Below, piece by piece: positions 6,199 to 24,240 of a stretch of DNA of 64,000 bases (its first letter is position 1; the number at the start of each line of letters is the position of its first letter). The stretch is from assembly GCA_022483465.1 (NCBI GenBank), contig JAKVNF010000001.1, forward strand, positions 620,001-684,000, in the 5' to 3' direction. The notes below the pieces were generated by a model. The model saw only the letters and a program-made list of their open reading frames with translations, had not been told where the DNA came from and did no database searches. A program made the position numbers and the translations under genes. The DNA is from Lachnospiraceae bacterium (lineage in GTDB: Bacteria > Bacillota > Clostridia > Lachnospirales > Lachnospiraceae).

Positions 6199-6660
6199 CC
6201 AGTGCCGATGATACGCTCAGACCGCAGTGAAAAGGGTCCTTTCATGTTTTGGATGGCTTTCTCTGGAGAAGGCGGTGCTGCCTGGCCTGGGCGATGAGCT
6301 GCCTTCCTGGTTCATCCAGGTGATCAGACCTACTGGCTGGTGCTAACGGTGACTGCTGTGAAGCCGGATTCGACGGGCTGATCATAGTCTGACCGTCCAG
6401 TCCGCATGATGAAAATGTGTTGAAGGCGCATCTCCAAGTACTTACAATGGTCTCATAAGACGGTTACCCAAGGCGGCGCAGTCCGGTGAAAGAAGGATCT
6501 TTTCGGCGATCGGAGGCAGGGCCGCAGATCGAAAGGAATCGCTGTATTGCGCTTTCCCTGCACACTCGTGATAAGGGAAGCCAGATATCTGATACTTGAT
6601 GCAGGTGGTGGCAGTTGGCAGAGATGTCAGCTGCTGCGGGTTCAATCGGCAATCAGCCAG
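6199..6660. other. Non-coding stretch upstream of the hydrogenase
   Basis: About 460 bases with no convincing gene. Several GC-rich partial palindromes are visible but no recognised riboswitch or RNA gene. It should hold the hydrogenase promoter; no clear -35/-10 pair was identified. Confidence 0.4.
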
Positions 6661-6671
6661 AGGAGGTTACA

Positions 6672-8531
6672 ATGTCAATGCATTTGTCGCCAGAAATCCG
6701 GGTTCCCATCGATCCGGAGAATCCATCCATTGAACGGCATGAGGATCTCTGTATCCGCTGCGGAAAGTGTCGCGACGTATGTCGTGACGAGATATCCGTT
6801 CTGACCTATTACGACCTTGCGAAGACCGGGGATGTCCCGATCTGCATCCACTGCGGTCAGTGCGCGAATGTCTGTCCCGTGGATTCGATTACCGAGAAGA
6901 GTGAGGTCGAAGCGCTGAAGGCAGCGATTGCAGATCCGGAGAAGATCGTCATCGTATCCACCTCGCCTTCGGTCCGTGTTGCCCTCGGAGAGGGATTCGG
7001 CAATGCTCCCGGCACCTTTTCCGAGGGGAAAATGGTTGCTCTGCTCCGCAAGCTCGGCGTCGACATCGTGCTCGACACGGATTTTGCCGCAGACATGACC
7101 ATTGTCGAAGAGGCATCGGAGCTGCTCTCCCGTGTCACAAAGAAGAGCGCGCCGCTGCCGCAGTTTACCTCCTGCTGTCCGGCCTGGGTGAAATTTGCTG
7201 AGACCTACTATCCGGATCTTCTGCCGCACATCTCGTCGGCCAAGAGTCCCATCGGCATGCAGGGACCGACCATCAAGACCTGGTATGCGAAGAAACAGGG
7301 GATCGATCCGAAGAAGATCGTGAATGTGTGCCTGACCCCCTGCACGGCCAAGAAGTTTGAGATCCGCCGTGCAGAGATGAACGATTCCGCTTCCTACTGG
7401 AACGATCCGGACCTGCGGGACATGGATCTTTGCATTACCACCAGGGAGCTGATCGGCTGGGCAAAAGAAGCCGGCATCGATTACGCGAACCTCCCGGAAT
7501 CGGATTTTGACTCTCTGATGTCCGAAAAGAGCGGCGGCGGCGTGATATTCGGCGCGACCGGCGGCGTTATGGAAGCAGCTCTCCGCGCAGCATATGAATA
7601 CCTGAACGACCGGCCTGCCCCCAAAGAATTGCTGCAGCTCTCGGAGGTCCGGGGATATGAGGGAATCCGCACGGCAACCGTGAAGTTGACAGACGCTCTT
7701 TCGGTCCGTGTGGCAGTGATCTTCGGGACAGCGAACGTGCGCCGTTTCCTCGAGGAGCAGAAGCTGGACGATTTTGATTTCATCGAGGTCATGACGTGTC
7801 CCGGCGGCTGCATCGGCGGAGGCGGTCAGCCCAAGCACCTCGAAACACCGGACGAGGCCAGGAAGGAACGCATCGAGGGCCTTTACGCAAAGGATGCGGC
7901 GATGGACGAGAAGGTCAGCACCCGGAATCAGGAGCTGAACGACGTGTATGCGTCCTTCTACGGAAAGCCCTTGTCGGATCTTGCCGAGAAGCTCCTGCAC
8001 ACGTCCTACCACCCCAGAGAGCAGGACCTTGGTGAGAGCGCTGAGAACTACCGGAAGTTAAAGAAAAACCAAAACCCGGAGAGTGATTATGTCGAGGTCA
8101 CAAAGGCGGGGGAGAAGACCCGGAAGTGGAAGTGTCGGATCTGCGGATATATCTACGAAGGGGCAACGCCGCCGACAGAATGTCCCGTCTGCCATCAGGG
8201 TGCCGATGCCTTTGACAGAATGAAGACCTGGAAGTGCAAGCTCTGCGGCTATACCTGTGAGGGCGTAACGCCGCCGGACGAGTGTCCCGTCTGCCATCAG
8301 GGCGCCGATGCCTTCGAGGAAGTGAAGACCTGGAAATGTAAGATCTGCGGCTATATCTGTGAGAGCGTTACACCGCCGGACGAGTGTCCCGTTTGCCATC
8401 AGGGTGCCGATGCCTTCGAAGAAGTGAAGACCTGGAAATGTAAGATCTGCGGCTATATCTGTGAGGGCGTGACGCCGCCGCAGGAGTGTCCCGTCTGCCA
8501 TCAGGGTGCTGATGCCTTTGAAGAGATTTAA
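6672..8531 (+). CDS. [FeFe]-hydrogenase with four C-terminal rubredoxin-like repeats
   Basis: 619 residues from the ATG at 6672, five bases after AGGAGG. Order: two [4Fe-4S] ferredoxin motifs (CIRCGKCRDVC, CIHCGQCANVCP, about residues 27-68); the H-cluster domain with all three signatures, L1 TSCCPAW (about 165), L2 CLTPCTAKKFE (about 220) and L3 EVMTCPGGCIGGGGQP (about 372); then a linker and, from about 486, four tandem 34-residue units each with two Cys pairs (CxxCGY ... CPVCHQG). All metal ligands look intact, so it should reduce protons or oxidise H2 in the cytosol. The repeats resemble the C-terminal domain of rubrerythrin and would bind one iron each, possibly relaying electrons. The gene has no partner subunit nearby. 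Its stop codon lies inside the target duplication of the IS66 element. Confidence 0.95.
   Translation: MSMHLSPEIRVPIDPENPSIERHEDLCIRCGKCRDVCRDEISVLTYYDLAKTGDVPICIHCGQCANVCPVDSITEKSEVEALKAAIADPEKIVIVSTSPSVRVALGEGFGNAPGTFSEGKMVALLRKLGVDIVLDTDFAADMTIVEEASELLSRVTKKSAPLPQFTSCCPAWVKFAETYYPDLLPHISSAKSPIGMQGPTIKTWYAKKQGIDPKKIVNVCLTPCTAKKFEIRRAEMNDSASYWNDPDLRDMDLCITTRELIGWAKEAGIDYANLPESDFDSLMSEKSGGGVIFGATGGVMEAALRAAYEYLNDRPAPKELLQLSEVRGYEGIRTATVKLTDALSVRVAVIFGTANVRRFLEEQKLDDFDFIEVMTCPGGCIGGGGQPKHLETPDEARKERIEGLYAKDAAMDEKVSTRNQELNDVYASFYGKPLSDLAEKLLHTSYHPREQDLGESAENYRKLKKNQNPESDYVEVTKAGEKTRKWKCRICGYIYEGATPPTECPVCHQGADAFDRMKTWKCKLCGYTCEGVTPPDECPVCHQGADAFEEVKTWKCKICGYICESVTPPDECPVCHQGADAFEEVKTWKCKICGYICEGVTPPQECPVCHQGADAFEEI
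8122..8531 (+). repeat. Four tandem 102-bp units coding rubredoxin-like domains
   Basis: Four near-identical 102-bp units (starting near 8125, 8227, 8329 and 8431) each encode WKC-x2-CGY ... PPxECPVCHQGADAF. High DNA identity between units suggests recent expansion by unequal recombination or slippage. Confidence 0.9.
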
Positions 8532-11722: not shown

Positions 11723-12112
11723 TCAGGATCTCTGGGATTCTGCGGCCACCTGATCAGGCATGTCGATGTGCGGGTATACTTCGCGGATGGTACCGTCAAG
11801 TGCGATTCCGCTCATGAGCTGACGGTACTGCTCCGGAGAAAGAGATCTGGCTTCGTCCGCATTCCTGGGATACTGGAATGAGTTTCCCGGCGCAAGGCGA
11901 AGCGTATAGAGCACAGTGCCGATTCCCTCGAAGCAGATCCCCTTGATCGTTCTGGCAGATCTGCCACGAAAAAGATAGAGAACTCCACGGTCCGTTGGAT
12001 CCAGGTGATAGTTCAGCATGACATAAGCGGAGAGTCCATCAACGCCGCGGCGCATATCCACCCTCTTCGTGCAGAGAATGATCTTCCTGAAGCCGATGCC
12101 GTCAACAAACAT
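11723..12112 (-). CDS. tnpB: IS66 TnpB
   Basis: 129 residues beginning MFVDGIGF at 12112; the ATG overlaps the end of tnpA in another frame. It carries the TnpB signature of IS66 elements: TKRVDMRRGVDGLSAYV and LYLFRGRSARTIKGICFEG. It is required for transposition in studied members; mechanism unknown. Confidence 0.9.
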   Translation of the reverse strand: MFVDGIGFRKIILCTKRVDMRRGVDGLSAYVMLNYHLDPTDRGVLYLFRGRSARTIKGICFEGIGTVLYTLRLAPGNSFQYPRNADEARSLSPEQYRQLMSGIALDGTIREVYPHIDMPDQVAAESQRS

Positions 12113-12620
12113 GAAAAGCCTCCTTAAGCATGGAGAGGGTCTCGCGCCGGACAGAAGAGTAGAGATAGAGCCGACAGGACCGTGTCTCCAGGATAACTTC
12201 CGGAGACACGGCAGGCCCTCCCGGCCTGCCTGGAACAGATCCGGCATTTCCTTCTTCCGGTGTACCGGTGATCCGCGGAAGATCAGAGTGGTTCGACCGG
12301 CTGCGGGAACCCGAGTCATCAGCAGTACCCGGTTCCGAGCCTATTGTATTGACATCAGGGCGTGCCTGTCCGTTTACGATGTCGGTGATGTCTACGAAGT
12401 TCTCTGTCTCTGGCACTGAACCAGAGGATGCCTTCCTGTTACTGGCGTCCGTCTCCCTGATCACGTTTTTCCAGTAGTAGAAGAGTGAGGCGTTGATCTC
12501 ATGCTCCCTGCACCATTGTGCAATCGACATCAGCTTCGTTTCTCTGTTCTCGTACGCATTGATGATCGGCCTCCAATAGCGAAGCTTCTCCTCACGAACC
12601 ATCTGCTGTCTCTTGTCCAT
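12102..12620 (-). CDS. tnpA: IS66 TnpA-like helix-turn-helix protein
   Basis: 172 residues. The N-terminal region (YWRPIINAYENRE...SIAQWCREHEINASLFYYWK) is the helix-turn-helix of IS66 TnpA. The rest is low complexity with a second conserved patch near the C-terminus (CRLYLYSSVRRETL). First gene of the element, eleven bases overlapping tnpB. Confidence 0.85.
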   Translation of the reverse strand: MDKRQQMVREEKLRYWRPIINAYENRETKLMSIAQWCREHEINASLFYYWKNVIRETDASNRKASSGSVPETENFVDITDIVNGQARPDVNTIGSEPGTADDSGSRSRSNHSDLPRITGTPEEGNAGSVPGRPGGPAVSPEVILETRSCRLYLYSSVRRETLSMLKEAFHVC

Positions 12621-12759
12621 AAAAAAGCCTCCTCTGTAGAACGCAGCTAGTAGTTTCCTAGCCTCATTCTACAGAAGAGGTTGATCCGGGTCATGGTACG
12701 TCCGTTGTTACGCTTACGATTTAAGATTGCGAGCGGGAATTCTTGGCAATTCAACCTAA

Positions 12760-12929
12760 CTGGAGAGTTGAAAGTTTGACTTGAAAAAGCGCAAACGTCT
12801 CCAGCTCTTTTAAAAGTGAAATCATTACTTCTATTGTAAAGTTTAAGTTATTGCCTGCTTTTTCGCCTATGCGGCCAGGTCCTCATCTGGATAGTGGGCC
12901 TGCAGCGCAGAAATATACCGGGTTAGGAA
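12760..12929. mobile_element. 170-bp remnant of the IS4-like element found intact at 59326
   Basis: The sequence from CTGGAGAGTTGAAAGT onward matches 59326-59495 closely, including the end of the transposase frame, then stops abruptly at 12929 where ISAzo13-like sequence starts. It is the left tip of a diverged second copy, truncated by later events. Confidence 0.85.
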
Positions 12930-12952
12930 TTGACACATAATAAATTAATCAG

Positions 12953-12981
12953 TTGGCACGTAATAAATCGACTGCTATAAT
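12953..12981 (+). promoter_or_regulatory. Promoter, probably of the ISAzo13-like transposase
   Basis: TTGGCA (12953-12958) and TATAAT (12976-12981) with a 17-base spacer, followed by GGAGG near 13000 that has no start codon behind it. The ISAzo13-like start ATG is now at 14021, separated from this leader by the IS200 element. Two imperfect repeats (TTGACACATAATAAAT, TTGGCACGTAATAAAT) at 12930-12970 look like the outer end of that element. Confidence 0.6.
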
Positions 12982-13143
12982 AGCCTTATATCTCGGATCG
13001 GAGGCAGTCGAATCAGTACCACCAGCTTTGCTGGTGGTCTGTGTTCGCCCCTCCGGGGCTTACCGGTGCGTTTCCGCCTAAAGGCGGTCTAGCAAACCGT
13101 TCTTACATTACTGGTGGCCGCCTAAAGGCGGCTCCCTTTTTGA

Positions 13144-13882
13144 CTACTTTTCGGGATCTCCTTCCAGTCGATCCCTTTCGTACTGTTCTGCAATATACTT
13201 CTTGATTGTCTCTTCATTGACATTTCCCACCGTTTCGCAATAGTAGCCTCTTGCCCAGAAATGTCTGTCGTATCTTTGGCGATATTCTGGATGCTTGTCG
13301 AAGATCATGAGAGAACTTTTTCCTTTGATGCGGCCAACTACCTTTGCCACACTCATTTTCGGTGGGATCGACACATACATATGTACATGATCAGGCAAGG
13401 TGGCCGCTTTGATAATCGTGACTCCTTCCATCTTGCAGACCTTCCCTATAATTTCGCCTAGGCGTTAGTAAAGAACCGGGTTGATGGGTTCCATACCACA
13501 ACCTCCATGGTGAACTCTCGACGCGATAATGTCCGATGAAGATATAGAATCCCCATTTGGAGCTCTTTTCTTCTCCGCATAATGCCTATCTTGTTATTTA
13601 TAGTCACATACTCGGCAAGTGAGTGTATGTGTTTAGGCAATCTAGGTGATGCTTTGTTACATGATGCAACACAGCACGGATAGGAGTGTACCCAGCTCGA
13701 GCTCAAAGTGAGGTATTAGTGGTCTCATGCTAGGCGATCGCTTATCAACCCGTTTCTTAACTAACGCCTTCGCCTATTTCCTTCCGCAGCTCCCCGAACA
13801 TTACTTTTCGTCTATACTTCGGAATGAACACTATATGATATGTGCAGTTATATCGACTGTGTGCTAAACTCAAATCGTCCAT
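13144..13882 (-). pseudogene. tnpA: IS200 transposase TnpA split by MITE
   Basis: The N-terminal part (13882 down to 13769) reads SRYNCTYHIVFIPKYRRKVM; the C-terminal part (13460 down to 13144) carries the HUH motif DHVHMYV and the catalytic Tyr in ETIKKYIAEQY. Removing the MITE and one copy of the 8-bp duplication restores one 140-residue frame (KEIGE joined to IIGKVCKM), the normal TnpA length. The gene was intact when the MITE arrived. Confidence 0.9.
13461..13768. mobile_element. 308-bp MITE, copy 1, with IS1595-type ends
   Basis: Ends GGCGTTAGTAAAGAACCGGG and the complement of GGCGTTAGTTAAGAAACGGG form inverted repeats of about 28 bp, flanked by the exact 8-bp duplication TTCGCCTA (13453-13460, 13769-13776). 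The ends match those of the IS1595 elements at 14516 and 15737. It encodes no transposase. The reverse complement recurs at 46469-46776. Confidence 0.95.
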
Positions 13883-14020
13883 GGGCGCCTCCGCTGTCTT
13901 GAAGTGGTTTGCTAGACCTACTTCATTGTACAGCGGAGGCTGTTTTTTGTTACTCCGCTTGCCGCCACGGGCTTCTGTCACTCCCCCAGCTCCGCTGGGG
14001 GATTAAGATCTGTTTCATTC

Positions 14021-14515
14021 ATGGCTTCACCAATATATGATAGCGACCACGTTGATCATATTTTATCCAATATTTCCGTCATTTTGCCCTATGTCAATGA
14101 GCGCCAGAGACGGCTGATTATAGGAGCTCTTTCTGATGCACTGGGTTATGGCGGCAAGTCTGCGATCAGTGAAAAATGCGGTGTGGCACGTAATACCGTG
14201 CGCAAGTCCGACGAAGAGTTCAAGCTCATTATCGCTGATGCTGCCGGCGAGACTTCTACTTCCACAGAGACAGAAACCAAAAGTGACGAAGCAGAAGACT
14301 CTGGCACTACGGATACCGATAAGGATTCTGAAATGTTGCTGGAAGCAACTCCAGAGCAGATTGTCGGGCTTTATGATGGCTCCGTCAGCCTTTCTTCACT
14401 TGAAAGCAGACGGCGCCGCGCGGGTGGTGGCAGAAAAAGTGAAGCTGCGAAAAATCCGGAACTGATTCCGGCATTGATGGAGATCCTTGACGACTACACC
14501 TATGGTAATCCGGAA
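14021..14515 (+). pseudogene. ISAzo13-like transposase, N-terminal fragment
   Basis: 165 codons of an ISAzo13-family transposase N-terminus: a helix-turn-helix region (ALGYGGKSAISEKCGVARNTVRK), an acidic Ser/Thr-rich spacer, then RRRRAGGGRKSEAAKNPELI and DDYTYGNPEG, the stretch just before the DDE domain. It is cut at 14515 by IS1595 element A. The catalytic part is not found beyond either IS1595 element, so it has been deleted. Confidence 0.75.
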
Positions 14516-15729
14516 GGCGTTAGTAAGAAAACGGGTTGATAAGCTCCAAAGCGTTTTAGCAGAAGTATAAAATATGCCGTTTTGTACATTCTGCTGTACA
14601 ACGGCCTTCTCTAACTTGAACTACAATAGTCTTGCCAGGAGGGCAAGACTATGAGCTGCATTGAGCGCATACTGACCGAAGCCAGAGATCTTTCCAGGGA
14701 CGACCTGATTCTTCTTGTTAACAAGCTCATGGAGGGCTTCTCCCATGAGAGTGCAACCTCTTCTCCGAAGAAGATGATTGCTCCCCGTTTGGATTGTCCG
14801 ATCTGCCATTCCAATGCTCATGTTGTTAGGAATGGACACAAACATGGAAAACAGGCATACATCTGCAGGCAATGTGGAACGTCATTTGTTACAACGAGCA
14901 ACACTTTGCTCTCAGGCTCACACTTTGGTACTGAGATCTGGACCAAGGTTCTGGAAGAGACGCTCAGGGGGACCTCTCTGGATAAGACGGTCAAGTCACT
15001 TGCCAGCCATGGATGCAAGATCAGCCATAGCAGTCTGTTCTTCATGCGGCATAAGATCATGCTTGCTCTCGAGGACATGCAGGTGGAGCAGCCAGCCACG
15101 GTGGAAGATGTCGTGGAAGCGGATGAAACCTACGTTCCGGAGTCCAAAAAAGGTACGAAATTTGGCCCTGATGCCAGTCGAAAGCCCCGCAAGCGTGGCA
15201 CTCCCGCATCCAAACGCGGCCTTTCAGACGAGCAGATCTGTATCTGCACCGCAGTACAGCGCAAGACTGGCGATCTGATCGTGAAATCCGAGAACCGGGC
15301 AAGGCCTTCCAGTGCAAATGTTGTTGATATCTATACTGGTCATGTCCAGAAGGGCACACTTTTCCTGACGGACGGCATGAATGTGTATCCGAGGCTGGGC
15401 AAGATCCTGGGAATCACGGTCATGAATGTGAAGAAGGAGTCGGCAGGTTTCTTCAATCTGAACACTGTGAACAACCTTCACTCTTTTATCAAGCGCCGAT
15501 ATACCGAATATCGCGGTGTCGCCACCAAGTATTTGAACCGTTACAACCTCGTATTCAGGGCAGCGTACAGGCAGAGGACAACGATTGGGGAACTTGCGGA
15601 AACTCTCTTTGCATCCAGGAATCCCAAGAAGGTACACCATTATGGAGATGTTAAGGAGCTCAATCTGCTTGCAATTTGATGACTACAAGATGCACTTATT
15701 GCTTATCAACCCGTTTTCTTACTAACGCC
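14516..15729 (+). mobile_element. IS1595-family element A
   Basis: 1214 bp with identical inverted ends GGCGTTAGTAAGAAAACGGG... of about 29 bp. No matching target duplication is found at its two flanks, which suggests recombination with element B after insertion. It is separated from element B by only seven bases. Confidence 0.9.
14651..15679 (+). CDS. IS1595-family (ISXO2-like) transposase A
   Basis: 342 residues. An N-terminal zinc ribbon (CPICHSNAHV...CRQCGTSF) is followed by the IS1595 DDE-type domain with VEADETYV, LFLTDGMNVYP and NNLHSFIKRRYTEYRGVATKYLNRY. A GGAGGGCAAGACT leader precedes the ATG. It closely resembles transposase B, and either could mobilise the two MITE copies in this window. 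Confidence 0.95.
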   Translation: MSCIERILTEARDLSRDDLILLVNKLMEGFSHESATSSPKKMIAPRLDCPICHSNAHVVRNGHKHGKQAYICRQCGTSFVTTSNTLLSGSHFGTEIWTKVLEETLRGTSLDKTVKSLASHGCKISHSSLFFMRHKIMLALEDMQVEQPATVEDVVEADETYVPESKKGTKFGPDASRKPRKRGTPASKRGLSDEQICICTAVQRKTGDLIVKSENRARPSSANVVDIYTGHVQKGTLFLTDGMNVYPRLGKILGITVMNVKKESAGFFNLNTVNNLHSFIKRRYTEYRGVATKYLNRYNLVFRAAYRQRTTIGELAETLFASRNPKKVHHYGDVKELNLLAI

Positions 15730-15736
15730 TTCTGAT

Positions 15737-16923
15737 GGCGTTAGTAAAGAAACGGGTTGATAAGTAACGATCCCAAAAGTTTTTCCGGATTTGTACATTT
15801 AAATGTACGACGCCCTTTTAGGACTTGACCTATAATAGTCGTGTCAGGAGGGCACGACTATGGGTAACATCGAACGCATACTGGCTGCAGGAAACAACCT
15901 CTCTGATTCGGATCTTAAGATTCTCGTTAACAAGATCATGGACCGTCTGAACCATGAGAAGGCGTTTGCTTCTTCGGTGAAGATCGTTCCCCGGATGGAA
16001 TGTCCGGTCTGCCATACCAGTTCACATGTTGTTAGGAACGGTCACAAGCATGGCAAGCAGGCATTTCTGTGCCGGGCATGCGGAAAGTCGTATGTTACAA
16101 CAAGTAACACACTTCTGTCTGGCTCACATTACAGCAGTGATGTCTGGAAGACCGTCCTTGCTGACACACTGATGGGCGTATCCCTTGATGATGATCTTCA
16201 GCATATCCGGATCAGCCATACCAGCCTCTTCTTTATGAGGCATAAGATCATGCTGGCGCTTGAGGATCTTCAGGAGGTCAGTCCTGCAATGGTCGAGGAA
16301 GTTGTCGAGGCTGATGAAACCTACATACCAGAGCCGGAGAAAGGGACAAAATTCGGGCCCGACGCCAAGAGAAAGCCCCGTAAGCGCGGTACTCCGGCAT
16401 CCAAGCGCGGCCTTTCGGACGAGCAGATCTGCATCTGCACTGCAGTTCAGCGCAAAAGCGGCGATCTGGTTGTAAAGTCAGAGAACCGGGCAAGACCTTC
16501 CACAGAGGATGTCGTTGACATCTACACAGGTCATGTTAAGAAGGGGACCCTCTTCCTTACGGACGGAATGAACGTATATCCGAAGCTGGGCAAGGTACTG
16601 GGACTCAGCGTTATGAATGTGAAGAAGGAGACAGGCAGCTTCTTCAGCCTGAACACGGTTAACAATCTGCACAGCTTCATCAAGAACCGCTACTACGACT
16701 ACCGCGGTGTGGCTACCAAGTACCTGAACCGCTACAACATGGTATTCCGTGCAGCATACCGGATGAGGATGTCGGTGGATGAACTTGCAGAGAAGCTCTT
16801 CCTGGTGCGTGATCCGAAGAGAGTGCATCACTATGATGATGTCAAGGAACTGAATATGTTTGCTGTATAAATATGTTCCTACGAATTTTATATTGCTTAT
16901 CACCCCGGATCCTTACTAACGCC
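15737..16923 (+). mobile_element. IS1595-family element B
   Basis: 1187 bp; left end GGCGTTAGTAAAGAAACGGG, right end diverged (complement of GGCGTTAGTAAGGATCCGGG). It lies tandem to element A. No target duplication is visible. Confidence 0.85.
15860..16870 (+). CDS. IS1595-family (ISXO2-like) transposase B
   Basis: 336 residues with the same zinc ribbon (CPVCHTSSHV...CRACGKSY) and catalytic blocks (VEADETYI, LFLTDGMNVYP, NNLHSFIKNRYYDYRG) as transposase A, from which it differs throughout while keeping all motifs. It looks functional; its right terminal repeat is the less well conserved part. Confidence 0.95.
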   Translation: MGNIERILAAGNNLSDSDLKILVNKIMDRLNHEKAFASSVKIVPRMECPVCHTSSHVVRNGHKHGKQAFLCRACGKSYVTTSNTLLSGSHYSSDVWKTVLADTLMGVSLDDDLQHIRISHTSLFFMRHKIMLALEDLQEVSPAMVEEVVEADETYIPEPEKGTKFGPDAKRKPRKRGTPASKRGLSDEQICICTAVQRKSGDLVVKSENRARPSTEDVVDIYTGHVKKGTLFLTDGMNVYPKLGKVLGLSVMNVKKETGSFFSLNTVNNLHSFIKNRYYDYRGVATKYLNRYNMVFRAAYRMRMSVDELAEKLFLVRDPKRVHHYDDVKELNMFAV

Positions 16924-17012
16924 TTTTGAAAAAGTGTTCTTAACTTCAAAATAATCCGACATATTTGTAATGCAACAAGCAAGACTGCTCCTTTCTATCA
17001 GGAGGACGGCAT

Positions 17013-18743
17013 ATGGGATTCAAGCGTTTCAGACCGGAAAATGAGAATCGTACTGCTTATCGGCTTTTATGCCCTCGCCATGTTATCGCATTTGAGGCAG
17101 ACATAGATGAAGACAACAAACGGCATACTTTTTCCAAAAACGATACCCTGCGCATAGCTGATAATGAAACGATAGCCATCATGCGCAAACGGATTGATCA
17201 GCTCAAGCGTACACGGAAATATCGTGCTCTTCAGAAAGACTACCTATGGAAGAAGCAGCATCTTGTCAAGCTGGATCCCGAATCCGATGCGTATCAGCAG
17301 CTGGATGAGGCAAGAAAACATACTGCCAATCAGATGGCTGCAATGCAGCGTAAATTTCAGGTCTCAAAATCTGAGGTTCAAAAATTAATGCAGGAAGCGG
17401 CAAAAGATCACAAGATTCCTTCTGTTCTTGCTGCTACCAGTGCGGATAATATCTGGCAGGGCATTCAAAAAGTCCTGTACTCCAATGGGAAGAATATCCA
17501 CTGCCACAAGCGCGGCGATCTGCCTGTAATGCGGGCGAAAGAAATCAATCGCATTATCGTTCTCAAAGTCGATAAGGAAACAGAGCGTCTTGTGGTTCAT
17601 ATAGATGGACTTGACCCGATGCCATTGCTGGTCCCGAAGGATGATCAATATCTGATCGACGAATACAACGCACTGCTGGATTATATGGAACACCCAGAGG
17701 TGGAAGATACGGCAGTGCGTACATACAGCGAAACCAATAATGTTGTTCCTGTTTTCCGCCCCTGCTATTGTGCGATTCAGTGCAAGAAAATCCGTGGGAA
17801 GCTCCGCTGTTTTGTGCTGATCACCATTGCTGCTCCCCCTATGCCAAAGAAGGATAAGTATGGCAGACCGAGAGTCGTCCGTGGAAACGGACGGGTTGGC
17901 TGCGATATTGGAACGCAGTCAGCAGCTGTAGTGTCTCAAAACTCTGTAGAACTCTTCAATCTGGGAGAACGCAATCAGGGTGCATATCAGAAAAACGATA
18001 AGCGGAAAAAGCTCCTGCTGCGTAAGATGGATGCCAGCCGCAGAGCTATGAATCCGGAACGGTTCAACAAAGACGGTACTTATAAGAACGGCACACATGG
18101 CAAGTGGAAGGTGTCGAAATCCAATCGCAAGAGGCTGTATAAATATCGGGAACTCTGCAGAAAGGAAGCCGCAACCAGACTGTATGCCAACCAGGAAGCT
18201 GCCAATCATCTGCTTTCGCTAGGCAATGTCCTGATCACGGAACCTTCGAATACAGCAGCACTTGCACACAGGTCGAAGAAAAAGGCACAGCGATCTGACA
18301 AAGCATCGCAGATTCCGCAAAAAGACGGCACAACGAAAACGGTCCACAAGTTCAAGAAAAAGAAACGGTTTGGCGCTTCCGTATTAAGGCGAAGTCCTGC
18401 TGGTTTTCAGGCAGAGCTTCGTAAGAAATTTGGGCCCGGCTACCATGAAGTACCACGTATGACTTATCGAGCGAGTCAGTACGATTTTATGCTTGACGCA
18501 TACATCAAAAAGAAGCTCGACGAACGATGGCATTCACTTCCGGATGGACGGCAAGTCCAGCGGGACATTATGTCAGCTTTCCTGTTATCGTGTGCAGACG
18601 ACGAATTCCAATCCATAGATCGAAACCGGTGTCTGCAAGCATTTGATCACTTTTGGCAGATGCACCAGCAATGTATCAACACCATCATCCAGAATCACTT
18701 AACGATTTGTAATTCCGGCATTAAGTTGGATAAAGCAGTGTAA
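17013..18743 (+). CDS. Large TnpB-like RuvC protein, putative RNA-guided nuclease
   Basis: 576 residues, start 17013 with GGAGG seven bases upstream. The N-terminal half is basic and helical (about 40-140), followed by a segment ending in RGDLPVMRAKE. A RuvC-type nuclease can be traced: Asp298 in RVGCDIGTQSAAV, Glu410 in VLITEPSNT, Asp518 in VQRDIMSAF. Between motifs II and III, where TnpB usually has a CxxC zinc ribbon, there is no cysteine, and the protein is longer than typical TnpB (about 400). No tnpA lies directly beside it. Alternatives are a diverged IS605 OrfB or a Cas12-like relative. A structured, gene-free tail follows the stop codon. Confidence 0.65.
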   Translation: MGFKRFRPENENRTAYRLLCPRHVIAFEADIDEDNKRHTFSKNDTLRIADNETIAIMRKRIDQLKRTRKYRALQKDYLWKKQHLVKLDPESDAYQQLDEARKHTANQMAAMQRKFQVSKSEVQKLMQEAAKDHKIPSVLAATSADNIWQGIQKVLYSNGKNIHCHKRGDLPVMRAKEINRIIVLKVDKETERLVVHIDGLDPMPLLVPKDDQYLIDEYNALLDYMEHPEVEDTAVRTYSETNNVVPVFRPCYCAIQCKKIRGKLRCFVLITIAAPPMPKKDKYGRPRVVRGNGRVGCDIGTQSAAVVSQNSVELFNLGERNQGAYQKNDKRKKLLLRKMDASRRAMNPERFNKDGTYKNGTHGKWKVSKSNRKRLYKYRELCRKEAATRLYANQEAANHLLSLGNVLITEPSNTAALAHRSKKKAQRSDKASQIPQKDGTTKTVHKFKKKKRFGASVLRRSPAGFQAELRKKFGPGYHEVPRMTYRASQYDFMLDAYIKKKLDERWHSLPDGRQVQRDIMSAFLLSCADDEFQSIDRNRCLQAFDHFWQMHQQCINTIIQNHLTICNSGIKLDKAV

Positions 18744-18994
18744 TCTTTCTGCTTATACCATAGCAGGGCGTTTGACTTAGCGCCCGGTTCTTGAAACAGA
18801 GAACGAATTGAACCCAGTAAAGTACCGTCAGCTCTGAGCTGACCGGTCAGAGGTTTAGATGGCTGGCTCCGGAGTAAATACCTGTCCCAAAGCAGCTTGT
18901 CTGTGAGTACGACACGAAATACCTCCGTGTGGAAGACCAACATCTTCCCCAACCAGAATCCCTCGCGTGCGAACCCCCGTGGCTCGCCACGGGG
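18744..18994 (+). ncRNA. Candidate omegaRNA-like scaffold 3' of the TnpB-like gene
   Basis: 250 gene-free bases that can form four stems: GGGCG/CGCCC (18766-18785), GTTCT/AGAAC (18787-18804), GTCAGCT/AGCTGAC (18827-18843) and CCCCGTGGC/GCCACGGGG (18975-18994). In TnpB systems the guide RNA scaffold overlaps the right end of the element just after tnpB, and the last hairpin is at that end. This placement fits, but the assignment is inference. The guide would be read from about 18995 onward. Confidence 0.45.
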
Positions 18995-19031
18995 TAAGTC
19001 AGATCTTTTGTCTGACATCCGGAGGTATCCC

Positions 19032-19913
19032 ATGCGCCCGCTCTACGAATCCCTGCAGGACGACTTTGAGATCTACGAGAGGGAGTCCTTTCACTTCTCT
19101 CCCCAGATCCACAACTTTGTCGAGTGCTTCTACATCACCAGCGGCACCTTTGAGCTGGGCCTGGACCAGCACCTGTACCACATGGAGACGGGGGACTTTG
19201 CGATCATCTTTCCCGGGACGATCCACCACTCCCAGGTCTTTGACCCGGGCCCCTGCACCAACATCGACATGCTGTTTTCCACCTCGTACACCGGGGTCTT
19301 CAGCGACACGCTCCTGCAGAACCGGCAGATCGACCCGGTGATCCGGGCGAAGGATCTGCACCCGGACGTGCCCTACGCGATCCACTCCCTCCTCGCCGAC
19401 AAGCAGGCGGGAAAGCTCAGCCAGGTGCTGGCCCAGTCCTGGGTGCAGATCATCCTGACCCGCTGTATGGCGGTCTACCAGCTCGAGCCCCGCTCCGCCA
19501 CGGTCAACAACGATCTGATCTTCCGGAGCGTCTCCTACATCGCCGAGCACTTCGCCGAGCCCATCACTCTGACCAAGATGGCAAAGGATCTGTACGTGTC
19601 CCCCTATGCGATCTCCCGCATGTTCTCCGGGACCTTCCACACCAACTTCAACGGATACCTGAATGACACCCGGATTGAGTACATCTGCTCGCTCCTTCGC
19701 TACACCGACCAGTCAATCACCGAGGCCTACATCAACGCGGGCTTTGAGAGCCAGCGCACCTTCAACCGGGTGTTCCAGGAAAAGATGCACATGACCCCCA
19801 GGGAGTACCGGATCAAGTCCCGGGGCCTCAAGAATCCGGCAGGTGGCGCGGCGGTATCTCCCACAGCCGACCCGCAAAAGGGCGGCGAAACCACCCCGGA
19901 AAAAACCACGTGA
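19032..19913 (+). CDS. AraC family transcriptional regulator
   Basis: 293 residues; start 19032 with GGAGG six bases upstream. The N-terminal cupin sensor domain (FHFSPQIHNFVECFYITSG, GDFAIIFPGTIHHS) precedes two AraC helix-turn-helix motifs (LTKMAKDLYVSPYAISRMF; ITEAYINAGFESQRTFNRVF) and the typical MTPREYR end, then a Pro/Gly-rich tail of 30 residues. Without the 13.7-kb inserted element it would lie next to the esterase and GH3 cluster, so it probably regulates sugar use. The upstream promoter region is now the end of the TnpB-like element. Confidence 0.9.
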   Translation: MRPLYESLQDDFEIYERESFHFSPQIHNFVECFYITSGTFELGLDQHLYHMETGDFAIIFPGTIHHSQVFDPGPCTNIDMLFSTSYTGVFSDTLLQNRQIDPVIRAKDLHPDVPYAIHSLLADKQAGKLSQVLAQSWVQIILTRCMAVYQLEPRSATVNNDLIFRSVSYIAEHFAEPITLTKMAKDLYVSPYAISRMFSGTFHTNFNGYLNDTRIEYICSLLRYTDQSITEAYINAGFESQRTFNRVFQEKMHMTPREYRIKSRGLKNPAGGAAVSPTADPQKGGETTPEKTT

Positions 19914-20045
19914 CAGCTTGATTTTCGAAACGACCAAATACCTCCGGGACAGCGATCTGGTCCGGTCCCCGTCAAGTGGATACTGAAAAATAATAATGCA
20001 ACCGTCAGTTGGATCTATCACCAGGTAGATCTGACTGGCGATTTT

Positions 20046-20423
20046 TTACGCTGCCTCATAGTATTTCTTGTGGTATGAGATTGGTGTGAGAAGATGCAGC
20101 CTGCGCTGCGTACGCTCCGTGTTGTAGTAATAGATGTAATTTCTGATCATGGACTCCAGCGAACTGCGATCTGTAAATCTTCTGCCGTAGTAACTTTCGC
20201 GCTTGAGCATTCCCCAGAATCCTTCCATCGGCCCGTTGTCAATGCAGTGGCCTACCCTGGACATACTCTGCGTCATCTTATGCTCAACAAGTCTCTGATG
20301 AAACTCTCTGCTTGTATATTGGAACCCTCTGTCACTATGAAACAGTGGGTGAGCATCAGGCTCTGCTGCGACGGCCTCATCAAACGTCTTCATCACCAGG
20401 GGCTTGTCATTATGATCGCTGAT
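20046..20423 (-). pseudogene. IS150-like orfB, 3' part
   Basis: Codes the end of the rve/DDE integrase domain: Asp in PLFHSDRGFQYTS, Glu in PMEGFWGMLKRE, and the terminal YYNTERTQRRL. It is separated from its 5' part (24247-24753) by the IS21 element. Removing the IS21 and one CGCTGAT copy joins AYEIS to DHNDKP in frame. Confidence 0.9.
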
Positions 20424-20516
20424 TGAGTATTCCGGAACAATGAAGCATGCTCCGTCGTGTGGACGGAGCATGCCTTCCGTGAATTAAACCTCTGTTTCCG
20501 CTCTTCAGTGCCACCT

Positions 20517-21305
20517 TCAGTTGGCTGTCGCCCCGAAGGAGCCCAGAGATGGCGGATCCCGGTGCTCGAAAACTGCCCGGAAGTCGTTCTCTCCAGTGTT
20601 CAGTACGATGACATTGTGTGTAAACCTCTCGATGATCGACTCGGAGAGGGCCCCCTCTCCAAGACAGGCCAGCCATTCGGCTTTGTCATGAAGGGTGGCG
20701 AAAATCGTACTGGTGGAGTCGAAGCGGCGCTCTGCCAACTCATATAGAAAGCGAACCTCATCCTCATCTACGCCAGTGGTGAGCCATTCGTCGATTACGA
20801 GTACCTGGTACTGGCTGTACTTCCGCAGCAGCCGCTTCTCCTCGCGAATCCCGGATATGCGTGCCTCTTCATCAGCGCTGAGAAGATCACTCATCCGGAT
20901 GTAAGCGGTCTTGTAGTGCTTCTTGCACGCCTCTTTCGCGAAGGCACAGGACAGGTAAGTCTTGCCTGAGCTGGGATAACCCTGGATGATCAGACTCGTG
21001 TGCTGCTCCACGAAGTGGCAGGTGGCGAGTTCATCCACAAGCTCCCTGCTGAATGGCCTCTTATCGTCGTACAGGATCTGAGTGACATCCGCAGTGGGAA
21101 TCCTGAGATGAGCAGCCTTCAGGAGATGCTCTACTTTCTCGTTGTACTTGGCCTGATAGGCTGCATCGACCAGTTCAGCAAGCCGCTTCTCAAACGGCTG
21201 GTTGACCCGATCCATGGATTTCGTTTGTTCCTGATACGCAACAACCATCTCCGGGACGCCCAGCACCCGGAGCTTGCGGTCGGTTTCTGCATCAAGCATT
21301 GCCAT
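20517..21305 (-). CDS. istB: IstB, IS21 helper ATPase
   Basis: 262 residues from the ATG at 21305, which overlaps the end of istA by 14 bases. AAA+ ATPase motifs are clear: Walker A in QGYPSSGKTYL and Walker B in VLVIDEW. IstB is needed with IstA for IS21 transposition and target choice. Length is normal. Confidence 0.95.
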   Translation of the reverse strand: MAMLDAETDRKLRVLGVPEMVVAYQEQTKSMDRVNQPFEKRLAELVDAAYQAKYNEKVEHLLKAAHLRIPTADVTQILYDDKRPFSRELVDELATCHFVEQHTSLIIQGYPSSGKTYLSCAFAKEACKKHYKTAYIRMSDLLSADEEARISGIREEKRLLRKYSQYQVLVIDEWLTTGVDEDEVRFLYELAERRFDSTSTIFATLHDKAEWLACLGEGALSESIIERFTHNVIVLNTGENDFRAVFEHRDPPSLGSFGATAN

Positions 21306-22947
21306 TGGCAGCTGCCTCCTTACTGCTCTGACCGTCTGAACTGCTCTGAACCTGCCCAGACGCACTGTGATTTCCAGATGCATTCTGGTAATAACTGCTC
21401 CCCCGCAGAAAGCCTCCTGTTGCCTTCTGTCCCTGCTCCTTCTCATAAGCGGCTTCCTTTTCCCGATACACGATATCCTGGCTGTCAGAGAGGATGGTGT
21501 TCAGGATCCGGTACCGCGGCAGGGGAATTCCGCGTGACAAGGCGATTTCGCAGGAGGTTTCCAGCTGTTCCGGTGAGTACTTTTTGCTCAATGCGAGCAC
21601 CGCATGGCAGGAGTTATACGCCTGCTCTGGGATCTTCACGCTTCGGAAGAGCATGTCAATGACGGTGCTGGTATGCGGCCCGATTGACTTGGCCCAGCTC
21701 CTATAGCGATCTTCTGTCCAGGGGGAGAGGTTTTGGAACTGCGGCGGCATATCCTCCGGATGCGTAGAGTACTTGTTCTTTGCAAACGACGGAAACAGCG
21801 GATGCGAGGTGAGCCTTGCTCCCTTGTAGTAGATCGTGAGGGTGGTACTTGAAACAAGCAGGTCTACCTTCTTCCGGTAGTACTGGTAAGGGCAGGAGTA
21901 AGAGTTCCGCCTGTACCTGACGTGGAAGTCCTTCTGCACCTTGTAGCCCATCTCCCAATGGGTGATCTCGAATGGCGTGGGAGGAAGCGCGCGGAGCTCT
22001 CCCTTCTCCTCACTCATGAATACCTCGTACCGGGAGCCCTCGCGTTTCTGAAAGGGTTTACGGTTAAATGCCTCGAGCCACTTCCTGGCATCCTCCTTGA
22101 TCTCCTCCAGGGAGTGATACTCTTTGTTCCTCGTCGCACCGATAAACGAATTCGCAAGCGTGTTGACCGATCCCTCTGCAGAACTCTTTTGCTTCGGTTT
22201 TCTGACCCCTGCCGGCATGATTGCACAGCAGTAGTACTCTCCAAAGGATTCGTACAGGTCTGTAAGGACGATTTCTCCTTCCCTGGGATGCTCCACGACA
22301 CCGGCCTTGAGGTTGTCACAGATGATCTTTCGGGTGACTCCGCCGAAGTAATTGAACATGTGCACCTGGGCGAGGATGAAGGTATCCATCTTCATGTCAC
22401 CGCAGGGCTCCAGGTACGCATGCATGGAGTATGGAAGCGCCGCAACGAAGAGATAGACCTTAACCTGTTTCTTTTCGTCCAGGGCGGTGTAATGCATGGT
22501 ATCGCCTGCCCAGTCCACCTGGACCGCCTCCCCGGGCTTATGATCAAGGTGGTTGGTCAGTTCGTTCAGACGGGTAAATTCATCGTAATCATCGTAAAAC
22601 TTGGTTTTTCCGACAGGAAGCAGCCCCTCTGAATTGCACTTGGCGAGGTATTCCTGATAGAGCAATGCCATGGTGACATCTTTCCTGCGCAGCTCATTGT
22701 GAATGTATTCGTAGTCCGGTACAGCAAAAGCAGCACTGTCAGCGTCCTTGTTGGGGAAGAACTTTTTGTAGACAGCGGCATCATCCAGCGTGCTTATATC
22801 CTGGTAGTGAATTTCCTCCGAATCCGCGATACGAAAGACTTCTGATACCGAGTTTCGGGAGACCTTTCTTGTACAAGCGATCATGCGTTGGGATATGCCT
22901 GCATCCTTCAGCTGAACAATTATTTTGACCGGGATTTTCCTGGCCAT
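21292..22947 (-). CDS. istA: IstA, IS21 transposase
   Basis: 551 residues, start 22947 with AGGAGG five bases upstream. An N-terminal helix-turn-helix (LKDAGISQRMIACTRKVSRNSVSEV) precedes the integrase core: Asp in VQVDWAGDTM, Asp in ICDNLKAGV, Glu in SSAEGSVNTL. The C-terminal tail is rich in Ser, Gln and Gly. It would bind the repeats at the element ends. Confidence 0.95.
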   Translation of the reverse strand: MARKIPVKIIVQLKDAGISQRMIACTRKVSRNSVSEVFRIADSEEIHYQDISTLDDAAVYKKFFPNKDADSAAFAVPDYEYIHNELRRKDVTMALLYQEYLAKCNSEGLLPVGKTKFYDDYDEFTRLNELTNHLDHKPGEAVQVDWAGDTMHYTALDEKKQVKVYLFVAALPYSMHAYLEPCGDMKMDTFILAQVHMFNYFGGVTRKIICDNLKAGVVEHPREGEIVLTDLYESFGEYYCCAIMPAGVRKPKQKSSAEGSVNTLANSFIGATRNKEYHSLEEIKEDARKWLEAFNRKPFQKREGSRYEVFMSEEKGELRALPPTPFEITHWEMGYKVQKDFHVRYRRNSYSCPYQYYRKKVDLLVSSTTLTIYYKGARLTSHPLFPSFAKNKYSTHPEDMPPQFQNLSPWTEDRYRSWAKSIGPHTSTVIDMLFRSVKIPEQAYNSCHAVLALSKKYSPEQLETSCEIALSRGIPLPRYRILNTILSDSQDIVYREKEAAYEKEQGQKATGGFLRGSSYYQNASGNHSASGQVQSSSDGQSSKEAAANGNA

Positions 22948-23064
22948 GAGCGCCTCCTTTCCATGAACGCACTTCAACCAGGCTTCATCAGCCAGAGAAG
23001 TCGATTATACAGACTGGTTACCGGCCAGTTGGTCTTATAGGTGTTGTCACTGCAGTGAGCGGAC

Positions 23065-23622
23065 CTAAAGCGTCTTCGTTTTAGGCTCACTATCATGATA
23101 TCGGAGGGTCAGAAGGCTGTCAGTTACCGTTATCTGGCACAGAACAGTCGTTCGGCATCTGGTATGCGCCGGATGCGGTGCAATCTGTCTTGATCTGATC
23201 ACAATCAGAAGAGACCGGAGAATCAGACAATTCAGGTCCTGCATAAAGGCGGCTTTCCAGCGGTACAGGGTTGTAACCGCGATTCCCGTCCGGCTGCAGA
23301 GATCCCGCACCGATTGGCACCGCCTGCACTTGTAGCAGTAAAGAGTAAGGAAGATGAACGATTTGGTGTATTGATAGTGCGGGAGCAGAAAGCAGGGAAG
23401 CATGGTGTAACGCTTGCCCGTTGCACGCGAATAGCGTCTTGGTATTGAGACCCTCATGGGCATAATCGAGGTTGCCGGATCGGTCGTGATCACTCCGCGG
23501 TCGTATTGGTTCTGCCCGACAACGTTTATGAGATGCTCAAGCGAAGACTGTGACCTGGCGTCCATGTCAAGGAGTGTCTCCACTATCGCAGAATTGAATT
23601 TGTTCTGGTATTCGGCTATCAT
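23065..23622 (-). CDS. Small IS21-associated protein with helix-turn-helix
   Basis: 185 residues; start 23622 follows GAGGACAG. Features: an N-terminal helical part, then RYSRATGKRYTMLPCFLLPHYQYTKS, a Cys pair (CYKCRRC) and a helix-turn-helix-like RDLCSRTGIAVTTLYRWK. The middle resembles small zinc-ribbon proteins that travel with some IS elements (DUF6431-like, from memory). It lies upstream of istA inside the IS21 ends, so it belongs to the element. Function unknown. Confidence 0.55.
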   Translation of the reverse strand: MIAEYQNKFNSAIVETLLDMDARSQSSLEHLINVVGQNQYDRGVITTDPATSIMPMRVSIPRRYSRATGKRYTMLPCFLLPHYQYTKSFIFLTLYCYKCRRCQSVRDLCSRTGIAVTTLYRWKAAFMQDLNCLILRSLLIVIRSRQIAPHPAHTRCRTTVLCQITVTDSLLTLRYHDSEPKTKTL

Positions 23623-23836
23623 AGGGCTGTCCTCAAAAGGATGATTCACAACTGCTGGTAACAGTTGTGATGCGTTGAAGAAAGGGCAGCTGGCTGAGCT
23701 TGGACCTTTCTTCTTTTTTTGCGCTGATACAATCAGTATATACTGATTTGATTCTGTAGAATAGTTATCTATAGAGAAAGCTTGATAATTGCGTGCTTCT
23801 GCATCTGAAATGTCGAAATCCGATGGCTCTCCTTAT

Positions 23837-24240
23837 GGAAGCCATGCTCAAAAGCCGGAATGCTACTGGAAACATGCAGCGGAAAGCATGCTCCGAATGC
23901 GGAAGAATTGCTCTGAGATGTGAAATAGAAATGGCTCCGATCTTCGGAATTCATGCCCTCACTGCGGAAAGCAGAACTGCTCTGAAAATCGGAACCGATG
24001 ATGATCTGAATGGCGGAAGGAAACAATGCGCTGACCGTCGGAATAGATGCTCTCGCATGTGAAACATCTGCTCTGTCTGCGGAATTGGGTATGCTCCCAA
24101 GTGCGGAAGCCTGGCAGACCTGCGGAAAGTGCTATGCTCTGAGCATCGGATAGGTGGCTCTGTCAATCTGGAAACGCCGATTCAACGATGAACGGAAAAG
24201 TGGCTCTGACTCGCGGAAGACTGGGCCCAAACGTCCGGAA
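23837..24240. repeat. About 19 imperfect repeats at the IS21 right end, 19-25 bp period
   Basis: Units of the form GCTCTGA-(N)-TGCGGAA recur with their GGAA blocks starting at 23837, 23857, 23881, 23901, 23946, 23966, 23991, 24015, 24040, 24081, 24105, 24124, 24170, 24194, 24215, 24237 and variants between. Spacing averages 22 bases, two helix turns. The left end has only about three units (20430-20500). They are most likely transposase binding sites; the number is far above the two or three described for IS21. Confidence 0.8.

What the first reader, a model, noticed from the sequence alone, without database searches (positions are those of the whole stretch)
17013..18995. Large TnpB-like RuvC protein without zinc ribbon, followed by a structured RNA-like tail
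The 576-residue protein has a traceable RuvC triad (Asp298, Glu410, Asp518) but no cysteine pair between motifs II and III, and is well above typical TnpB length. A 250-base gene-free tail with four stems follows and ends in a GC hairpin at the presumed element end, where TnpB systems place their guide RNA. It may be a diverged or compact RNA-guided nuclease lineage.
Basis: partly seen in the sequence, partly recalled or inferred. Interest (0 to 1): 0.72.

Follow-up and report, generated by a model that had tools for sequence, protein, structure and literature searches.

The report
Zinc-free TnpB with its guide RNA
A jumping gene in a gut-type bacterium carries a member of a large group of RNA-guided DNA cutters that seems to have lost the zinc-binding part normally found in this protein family, and the structured RNA that should guide it lies directly behind the gene.

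Summary
Both halves of the finding hold. The 576-aa protein (17013-18743) is a very diverged TnpB: its predicted fold matches TnpB/Cas12, and Asp298/Glu410/Asp518 are kept in 61 of 61 tree rows. It is not compact. No cysteine lies between RuvC-II and RuvC-III. The tail 18766-19002 is its omegaRNA: in 17 homologous tails 95.1% of pair cells are paired (40-46% when slid), with a 7-bp pseudoknot between the stem-1 loop and the last bases before the guide. Copies in the same genome fix the ends: left flank GTGAC (4 of 5) or GTAAC (1 of 5), right end ...AAGTCAG, then the guide; joined flanks of one copy give an open GGDEF-type frame. A Y1-type TnpA ORF lies upstream in 6 of 14 close relatives. So: an IS200/IS605-type tnpB element, TnpA presumably supplied in trans. 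Unusual is the TNB domain without a zinc-ligand set, in 52 of 61 tree rows (0-2 Cys), with CxC..CxC intermediates and at least two changes of state. New variant of a known kind; cleavage and metal content are inferred.

The parts
17013..18743 (+). tnpB-like gene, 576 aa, TNB domain without zinc ligands (protein P0001)
   Evidence: fold; relatives
17904..17906 (+). codon of RuvC-I Asp298 (GRVGCDIGT)
   Evidence: invariant in A1 and A2; 61 of 61 tree rows
18240..18242 (+). codon of RuvC-II Glu410
   Evidence: invariant in A1, at least 90% in A2; 61 of 61 tree rows
18462..18560 (+). TNB position (residues 484-516, TYRASQYDF...GRQVQ): the place of the zinc ribbon, all four Cys ligands absent
18564..18566 (+). 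codon of RuvC-III Asp518 (QRDIMSAF; typical TnpB has DRDxN)
18766..18785 (+). omegaRNA stem 1 (18766-18770 with 18781-18785), loop TTTGACTTAG
   Evidence: helix 1: 95.1% of cells paired, 3 of 6 pairs changed on both sides
18773..18779 (+). 5' strand of the pseudoknot, TGACTTA in the stem-1 loop
   Evidence: helix 2: 100% of cells paired, 2 of 7 pairs changed on both sides, 4 never vary; for the wider family
18975..18994 (+). right-end subterminal hairpin CCCCGTGG-CTCG-CCACGGGG
   Evidence: helix 4: 97.5% of cells paired, 4 of 7 pairs changed on both sides
18995..19001 (+). 3' strand of the pseudoknot, TAAGTCA; scaffold and element end at 19002
18761..19002 (+). omegaRNA scaffold as matched by the covariance model R1; the true 5' end of the RNA is unknown
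   Evidence: the window is one of the rows the model was built from
19003..19018 (+). predicted 16-nt guide (host sequence next to the right end)
   Evidence: element end; guide length by analogy with ISDra2 (PMC10097598, passage)
16924..17012 (+). remaining 5' part of the tnpB element upstream of the gene; the left end itself is missing in this copy
15737..16923 (+). IS1595-type element inserted in the 5' part of the tnpB element (TTTTGAAAA on both sides in the L016 copy); a passenger

Best explanation
It is a mobile TnpB of the IS200/IS605 type, from a lineage whose TNB domain no longer has the cysteine ligands of the zinc ribbon. Shown by sequence: the tnpB gene with its RuvC residues, the structured and covarying RNA directly behind it that ends at the right end of the element, several copies in the genome with sharp ends, and a left-flank motif GTGAC/GTAAC. 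Inferred: the transcript running from the gene through the right end into the flank gives an omegaRNA whose stem-1 loop pairs with the bases just before the guide; the protein holds it and cuts, with the D298/E410/D518 RuvC centre, DNA that reads GTGAC (the TAM) followed by the guide sequence. That is the sequence of the site from which the element has just been excised, so the cut favours keeping a copy. Also inferred: excision and insertion are done in trans by a Y1 TnpA, and the TNB binds no zinc. The TNB keeps the SQ...KK.LS.R...G..QRD framework of the zinc ribbon.
For: Fold: mean pLDDT 85.9; PDB matches 8hr5 1.9e-11, 8iaz 9e-11, 8h1j 1.3e-8. Sequence: family profile to RdCas12n 9j09, whole-sequence E 1.6e-4; 10 of 10 relatives tested match NF040570 guided_TnpB, E 1.4e-14 to 3.3e-34, 3 of 10 above its cut-off; NF040570 also matches the C2 copy of this very gene at E 3.1e-4, 20.4 bits, below the cut-off. 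RNA: 17 rows, 24 pairs, 95.1% of 405 cells paired, 56 cells changed on both sides against 17.3 shuffled and 3-19 slid; tails not used for the model found at E 8e-37 (L161) and 1.6e-13 (L007); exact pseudoknot 6-mer in 23 of 42 family tails, re-dealt mean 6.3, maximum 13 in 2000. Element: 4 right ends, 5 left ends; GTGAC in 4 of 5 and GTAAC in 1 of 5 left flanks; 233-codon frame without a stop after joining the flanks of the L016 copy, while the other two frames hold 4 and 7 stops. TnpA beside relatives.
Against: P0001 alone has no significant match in Pfam, NCBIfam, PHROGs or PDB sequences; the link runs through relatives. In the RdCas12n match no single stretch passes E 0.01 on its own, and RuvC-I lies in a separate stretch of i-Evalue 2.6. 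pTM is 0.49 and TM-scores to the TnpB/Cas12 structures named are 0.33-0.53. None of the 36 TnpA-like matches in this genome lies inside a copy, and the nearest is 40% identical to a relative's TnpA. The window copy has lost its left end. In one search one measure, further pair types, was reached by 64 of 500 shuffles; 4 of 7 pseudoknot pairs never vary; helix 3 is only 82.4% paired. The exact pseudoknot match fails in 19 of 42 tails, 10 of them also with G-U. Of 32 sources searched with the RNA model 25 gave nothing at E <= 0.01, most of the distant relatives among them. No transcript or cleavage was seen, and the missing zinc ligands could mean weak or no cleavage.
Confidence: 0.9

Rival explanations
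1. It is a TnpB-derived protein that binds RNA and DNA but no longer cuts, a TldR-like repressor or a decayed passenger, and the loss of the zinc ligands marks the loss of nuclease function.
For: The zinc ligands are gone; P0001 is far from known families; of the matches in this genome only two are full length without a stop, the rest are pieces; relative L030 does not show the triad.
Against: D/E/D is kept in 61 of 61 tree rows (L030 is among the rows left out of the tree) over a deep clade with element ends; the covarying omegaRNA is kept; two full-length open copies exist in this genome.
Confidence: 0.12
2. It is a type V CRISPR effector (Cas12-like) rather than a transposon nuclease.
For: The best Foldseek matches include Cas12f, Cas12p and Cas12m.
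Against: No CRISPR-like array among the 20 largest of 39 direct-repeat families of 12000-24000; several copies with transposon ends; Y1 TnpA partners in relatives.
Confidence: 0.03
3. The tail is only the transposase-recognition hairpin of the right end plus spacer, not a guide RNA.
For: The terminal hairpin resembles the left-end hairpin, as TnpA sites do.
Against: Stem 1 and the pseudoknot, about 200 nt further in, are kept and covary; TnpA end recognition would not need them.
Confidence: 0.05

Closest known systems
ISDra2 TnpB with its omegaRNA/reRNA (PMC10097598, passages seen)
   Same: RuvC DED centre, TNB inserted before RuvC-III, guide next to the right end, pseudoknot between the stem-1 loop and the bases before the guide, 5' motif next to the target.
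   Different: ISDra2 TnpB has 408 aa and a CCCC zinc finger (C331, C334, C351, C354), its omegaRNA overlaps the end of the gene, and its TAM is TTGAT. Here 576 aa, no Cys ligands, conserved stem 1 starts after the stop codon (15-48 nt from it in the 19 rows), motif GTGAC/GTAAC.
Typical and Derived TnpB clades of the survey in PMC10278001 (section 13 read in full)
   Same: IS200/IS605 setting, 3' hairpin within 10 nt of the guide.
   Different: Those clades are defined by RuvC-III DRDxN or NADxN; here QRDIMSAF. Figures are not held, so whether this lineage is in that tree cannot be told.
RdCas12n (PDB 9j09), Cas12f and Cas12m
   Same: Weak sequence homology over RuvC and TNB for RdCas12n; fold for all.
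   Different: CRISPR effectors (recalled); RdCas12n keeps CxxC..CxxC in the alignment.
Acidithiobacillus caldus pLAtc1 'RNA-guided endonuclease TnpB family protein' and Scytonema plasmid 'transposase, IS605 family protein' (L085, L086)
   Same: Same QRD framework; tnpA annotated next to it in L085.
   Different: They still have four cysteines in the TNB, in the shortened spacings CxC..CxC (L085) and CxC..CxxC (L086).

Membership tests
TnpB superfamily (RuvC nuclease of IS200/IS605 and IS607 elements) | RuvC D-E-D triad in an RNase H fold of TnpB/Cas12 type | tested here: met
TnpB superfamily (RuvC nuclease of IS200/IS605 and IS607 elements) | guide RNA scaffold at the right end, guide next to the end | tested here: met
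   by conservation and covariation only; no transcript seen
TnpB superfamily (RuvC nuclease of IS200/IS605 and IS607 elements) | RNA-guided DNA cleavage with a TAM | not testable with these tools
   TAM candidate GTGAC/GTAAC from 5 left flanks
Typical TnpB clade | RuvC-III DRDxN (definition from PMC10278001 section 13) | tested here: not met
   QRDIMSAF
Typical TnpB clade | CCCC zinc ribbon in the TNB domain | tested here: not met
   0 Cys in residues 410-518; relatives
IS200/IS605 element | subterminal hairpins at both ends, no target duplication, fixed 5' target motif | tested here: met
   both ends shown on the copies of L016 and L017, single ends elsewhere; the window copy has the right end only
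IS200/IS605 element | Y1 transposase encoded by the element | tested here: inconclusive
   none inside the copies of this genome; Y1-type ORF upstream in 6 of 14 close relatives, adjacent in L022, L082, L085, L087, L159; tnpB-only elements are known (IS1341 group, recalled; ORF B-only IStrons in passages of PMC4227781)
Type V CRISPR-Cas (Cas12) | adjacent CRISPR array | tested here: not met
   none among the 20 largest of 39 repeat families of 12000-24000
TldR (nuclease-dead TnpB; definition recalled) | broken RuvC triad | tested here: not met
   D298, E410, D518 present
IStron | group I intron in the element | tested here: not met
   no Rfam family reaches its gathering score in the window
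IscB | HNH domain between RuvC-II and RuvC-III (recalled) | tested here: not met
   no HNH family among Pfam matches up to E 10

The most novel reading that the evidence does not exclude
A large clade of mobile TnpBs with an intact catalytic triad, found here in Bacillota, Spirochaetota, Fusobacteriota, a Mycoplasmatota plasmid and viral contigs of up to 281 kb, has replaced the zinc ribbon of the TNB domain by a metal-free module. It went through CxC..CxC intermediates, and a second loss arose separately in Skermanella. In the clade of this window the conserved guide scaffold lies wholly behind the gene. If these proteins cut, zinc is not needed for TnpB target loading, and the clade shows how a Cas12 with a zinc-free nuclease lobe could have arisen from TnpB.
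Probability: 0.6. Interest if true: 0.6.

Novelty: new variant of a known kind. Interest (0 to 1): 0.47.

Why it matters
A CCCC zinc finger is described in the TNB domain of ISDra2 TnpB and Cas12f and as shared with a Fanzor (passages). A deep lineage without it, with intermediates, makes the role of the zinc in target loading directly testable. Annotation largely misses it: of 8 members without zinc ligands that I scanned, none passes a Pfam TnpB cut-off and 1 passes the NCBIfam one. The RNA scaffold, pseudoknot and TAM candidate make an experiment simple to set up.

Tried and rejected
P0001 alone as query found no relative in viral contigs or genome contigs; alignment queries did. Pfam, NCBIfam, PHROGs and PDB by single sequence gave only chance-level matches. 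The idea that the 1.5-kb insert in the C4 copy is an intein was dropped: it is an ISAzo13-type transposon on the other strand. The idea that the IS200 TnpA at 13144-13981 belongs to this element was dropped: it is a separate IS200 inside an ISAzo13-type element, with further copies in the genome. The first estimate of the left end (16938) was wrong: in the L002 copy that point is where the IS1595 remnant meets the tnpB part; the left end lies upstream of the passenger. A promoter scan gave 2 sites where shuffles give 3.4, so nothing is claimed. The helix at alignment columns 30-46 is only 82.4% paired; by eye the rows window, L002, L045 and L103 do not fit it. Rows left out: one search kept ORFs reaching profile position 530, one per distinct C-terminal 200 aa (54 rows); one per distinct C-terminal 150 aa (76 rows with the canonical ones); one search dropped 15 of those 76 as fragments or near copies; one search dropped 3 near copies and found no end in 9 of the remaining 51 loci. 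L030, a 468-aa relative without the triad, is among the 15. In one search the upstream stretch was at most 1400 bases, and 955 and 1059 in L048 and L025, so a more distant tnpA would be missed. Literature: none of the titles and abstract starts listed speaks of TnpBs without zinc ligands. I saw passages of PMC10097598, PMC10711439, PMC10278001, PMC10432273 and PMC4227781, and in full only section 13 of PMC10278001. Many subscription papers, and the large TnpB/Cas12 survey cited there, I did not see, so absence from print is not shown.

Full report
Observation. The ORF at 17013-18743 encodes 576 aa. Asp298, Glu410 and Asp518 are at the stated positions and there is no cysteine between residues 410 and 518. 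The stretch behind it holds only overlapping ORFs for which I sought no support as genes, and 18744-19020 folds better than its shuffles (z -2.97, 2 of 200 as good). No Rfam family at its gathering score and no tRNA was found in the window.

What the protein is. Alone, P0001 matches nothing significant (Pfam, NCBIfam, PHROGs, PDB sequences). Relatives were found first in genomes of the same genus and then, with alignments or tblastn, in genome contigs (25 loci), viral contigs (30 loci), plasmids (13 records) and phages (7 records). Some loci are copies or the same contig under two names. Genomes with a match at E <= 0.001, own genome included and some matches weak: 6 of 61 relatives, 12 of 295 in the order, 9 of 391 in the class: patchy, as for a mobile element. 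Ten of ten relatives scanned match NF040570 (RNA-guided endonuclease TnpB family), three above its cut-off; the same model reaches the C2 copy of this gene at E 3.1e-4, below the cut-off. A profile of 19 rows finds RdCas12n in the PDB with a whole-sequence E of 1.6e-4; no single stretch passes 0.01 (RuvC-I stretch 2.6; RuvC-II to RuvC-III stretch 0.062), but the RuvC motifs and the TNB line up. AlphaFold2 gives mean pLDDT 85.9, block means of 82-93 over residues 481-520, and pTM 0.49. Foldseek ranks CnCas12f1, ISFba1 TnpB, Cas12p and Cas12m at the top, ISDra2 TnpB at rank 10; the TM-scores of these are 0.33-0.53.

The zinc ribbon. Canonical TnpBs of the same genome read SSKTCCHCG...YICPVCGNIIDRD. 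Scytonema (L086) reads LSQTCLCGN...HNCSECGLRMQRD, G366 (L093) LSQMCQCGR...HRCECGINMQRD, Acidithiobacillus (L085) LSQSCHCGD...HDCSCGAHAQRD, Skermanella (L157) LSQFSHDTG...HVFADGSRVQRD, and the window protein RASQYDFML...HSLPDGRQVQRD. The framework around the ligands stays and the ligands go. Of 61 tree rows, 9 have four or five TNB cysteines, 40 have none, 11 have one and 1 has two. The state needs two changes on the tree; read with the canonical TnpBs as outgroup, that is one loss before the 51-row clade and one in Skermanella. The tree flags long branches (L151, L144 and others) and odd letter make-up, L157 and L085 included; the 51-row fork has support 94/98, just short of its star. Most of the clade has a His after the SQY(D/N) motif, the window protein a Phe, so a metal held in another way is not excluded for all.

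The RNA. In 17 homologous tails (window, the near copy L002 and 15 other loci; A4) I wrote out four helices. Of 405 cells 95.1% are paired; sliding the partners by 1-3 columns gives 40-46%; 12 of 24 pairs change on both sides (shuffled mean 8.2); 0 of 500 shuffles reach the covariation score, though 64 of 500 reach the number of further pair types. I named the structure after looking at these sequences, which favours it over the slid versions. One helix is a pseudoknot between the loop of stem 1 and the last bases of the element: TGACTTA with TAAGTCA in the window, CTGACTG with CAGTCAG in Spirochaetales, TTGACGA with TCGTCAG in phage clone L083; 2 of its 7 pairs change on both sides and 4 never vary. 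This is the arrangement known from ISDra2 (PMC10097598, passages) and ISXfa1 (PMC10711439, passages). Further out the pair becomes TGAAAC/GTTTCA, TGAACC/GGTTCA, TGACAC/GTGTCA and TGATAC/GTATCA; exact 6-mers occur in 23 of 42 tails against a mean of 6.3 and a maximum of 13 in 2000 re-deals, and with G-U in 32 of 42 against 15.3 and 24; among the 21 tails that do not end in GTCA the figures are 7 exact and 15 with G-U, shuffled loops 6.1 and 13 with G-U. Some G-U matches lie far from stem 1 and may be chance; ten tails show none. A covariance model from A4, searched over 32 sources, matches 7 at E <= 0.01: tails not in it are L161 (E 8e-37), the remnant L007 of the same genome (1.6e-13; L019 is the same place) and, weakly, a Finegoldia plasmid copy directly behind its gene (L160, 0.0044); L107 and L170 are near copies of rows in the model, and the window is a row. 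The other 25 sources, most of the distant relatives among them, give nothing at that level.

The element. Four right ends all stop at ...CCACGGGGTAAGTCAG and then diverge. Five left ends start ATAAAATGCG(G/A)GCGGCGGGTTCAAGCCCC, preceded by GTGAC in four and GTAAC in one; GTGAC occurs at 0.00074 per base in the window. Joining the flanks of the L016 copy at these ends gives 233 codons of a GGDEF-type frame without a stop and no duplicated bases, while the other frames hold 4 and 7 stops. Homologues in two other genomes align across the region at low identity and with gaps near the join, so the frame is the stronger argument. The joined C4 and L017 flanks gave no such test. This is insertion of the IS200/IS605 kind, without duplication and 3' of a fixed motif. 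Similar left-end hairpins, with TTATA before them, occur upstream of 10 relatives shown. An IS1595-type transposon sits inside the left part, flanked by TTTTGAAAA on both sides, and is shared, whole or as a remnant, by copies at different sites, so it moved with the element. In the window a second IS1595-type element adjoins it and the left end is gone, so this copy is probably stuck.

TnpA. None of the 36 TnpA-like matches of this genome lies inside a copy; the nearest is 40% identical to a relative's TnpA. Of 14 close-clade loci scanned, 6 have a Y1-type ORF (found by its HxH motif) upstream; Pfam confirms Y1_Tnp for the relatives L020 and L022; records annotate IS200-like or IS200/IS605 transposases beside the Geobacillus virus E3, Acidithiobacillus, Pontibacillus and Mycoplasmatota homologues. 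Which TnpA moves this element is not known.

Mechanism. Shown: conserved catalytic residues, conserved guide-RNA scaffold, element ends, 5' motif. Inferred: transcription through the right end, RNP formation, cleavage of GTGAC-guide sites left after excision, and so retention of the element. The host is probably a Lachnospiraceae: contig C10 of G015, placed in the same genus, has the length (30,831) of ONEK01000024.1, an uncultured Lachnospiraceae that holds the matching homologue.

Novelty. TnpB with an omegaRNA is a known kind. The TNB without zinc ligands, the RuvC-III motif QRDIMSAF and a conserved scaffold that starts only after the stop codon (15-48 nt from it in 19 rows) set this lineage apart from the clades described in the section I read (PMC10278001 section 13). 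The searches listed no paper on TnpBs without zinc ligands, but the main survey was not seen. I rate it a new variant of a known kind.

Noticed in passing
window 13015-14017: An IS200-type element (Y1 tnpA in two pieces, minus strand) sits inside an ISAzo13-type element and is itself interrupted by a roughly 310-bp sequence with IS1595-like ends (13460-13771), a MITE-like insertion.
   Followed up: partly
window 14513-16923: Two IS1595-type elements (stretches 72-78% identical) lie back to back; the right one is the passenger of the tnpB element.
   Followed up: partly
L015 6545-8063 (G000:C4): An ISAzo13-type transposon splits another copy of the tnpB gene just before RuvC-I; it also shows the uninterrupted site of the IS200 seen in the window.
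   Followed up: yes
G000, whole genome: Rich in IS200/IS605-type genes: 25 matches to the guided_TnpB family (one of them the C2 copy of this gene) and 36 TnpA-like matches.
   Followed up: no
L166 (G000:C1:474312): A left end of the same element without the IS1595 passenger at that point, followed by other DNA with an IS1595-like end further on; could be an older form.
   Followed up: no
window about 8110-8528: The protein at 6615-8531 ends in four similar CxxC..CxxC repeats (rubredoxin-like, name recalled; read by eye from the translation).
   Followed up: no
L157 1372-2937 (Skermanella rosea plasmid): A separate loss of the zinc ligands in a relative without an annotated tnpA beside it; possibly a domesticated copy.
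   Followed up: no
L030 (G246:C23): A 468-aa relative whose triad columns do not read D/E/D; either misaligned, a fragment or a nuclease-dead member.
   Followed up: no
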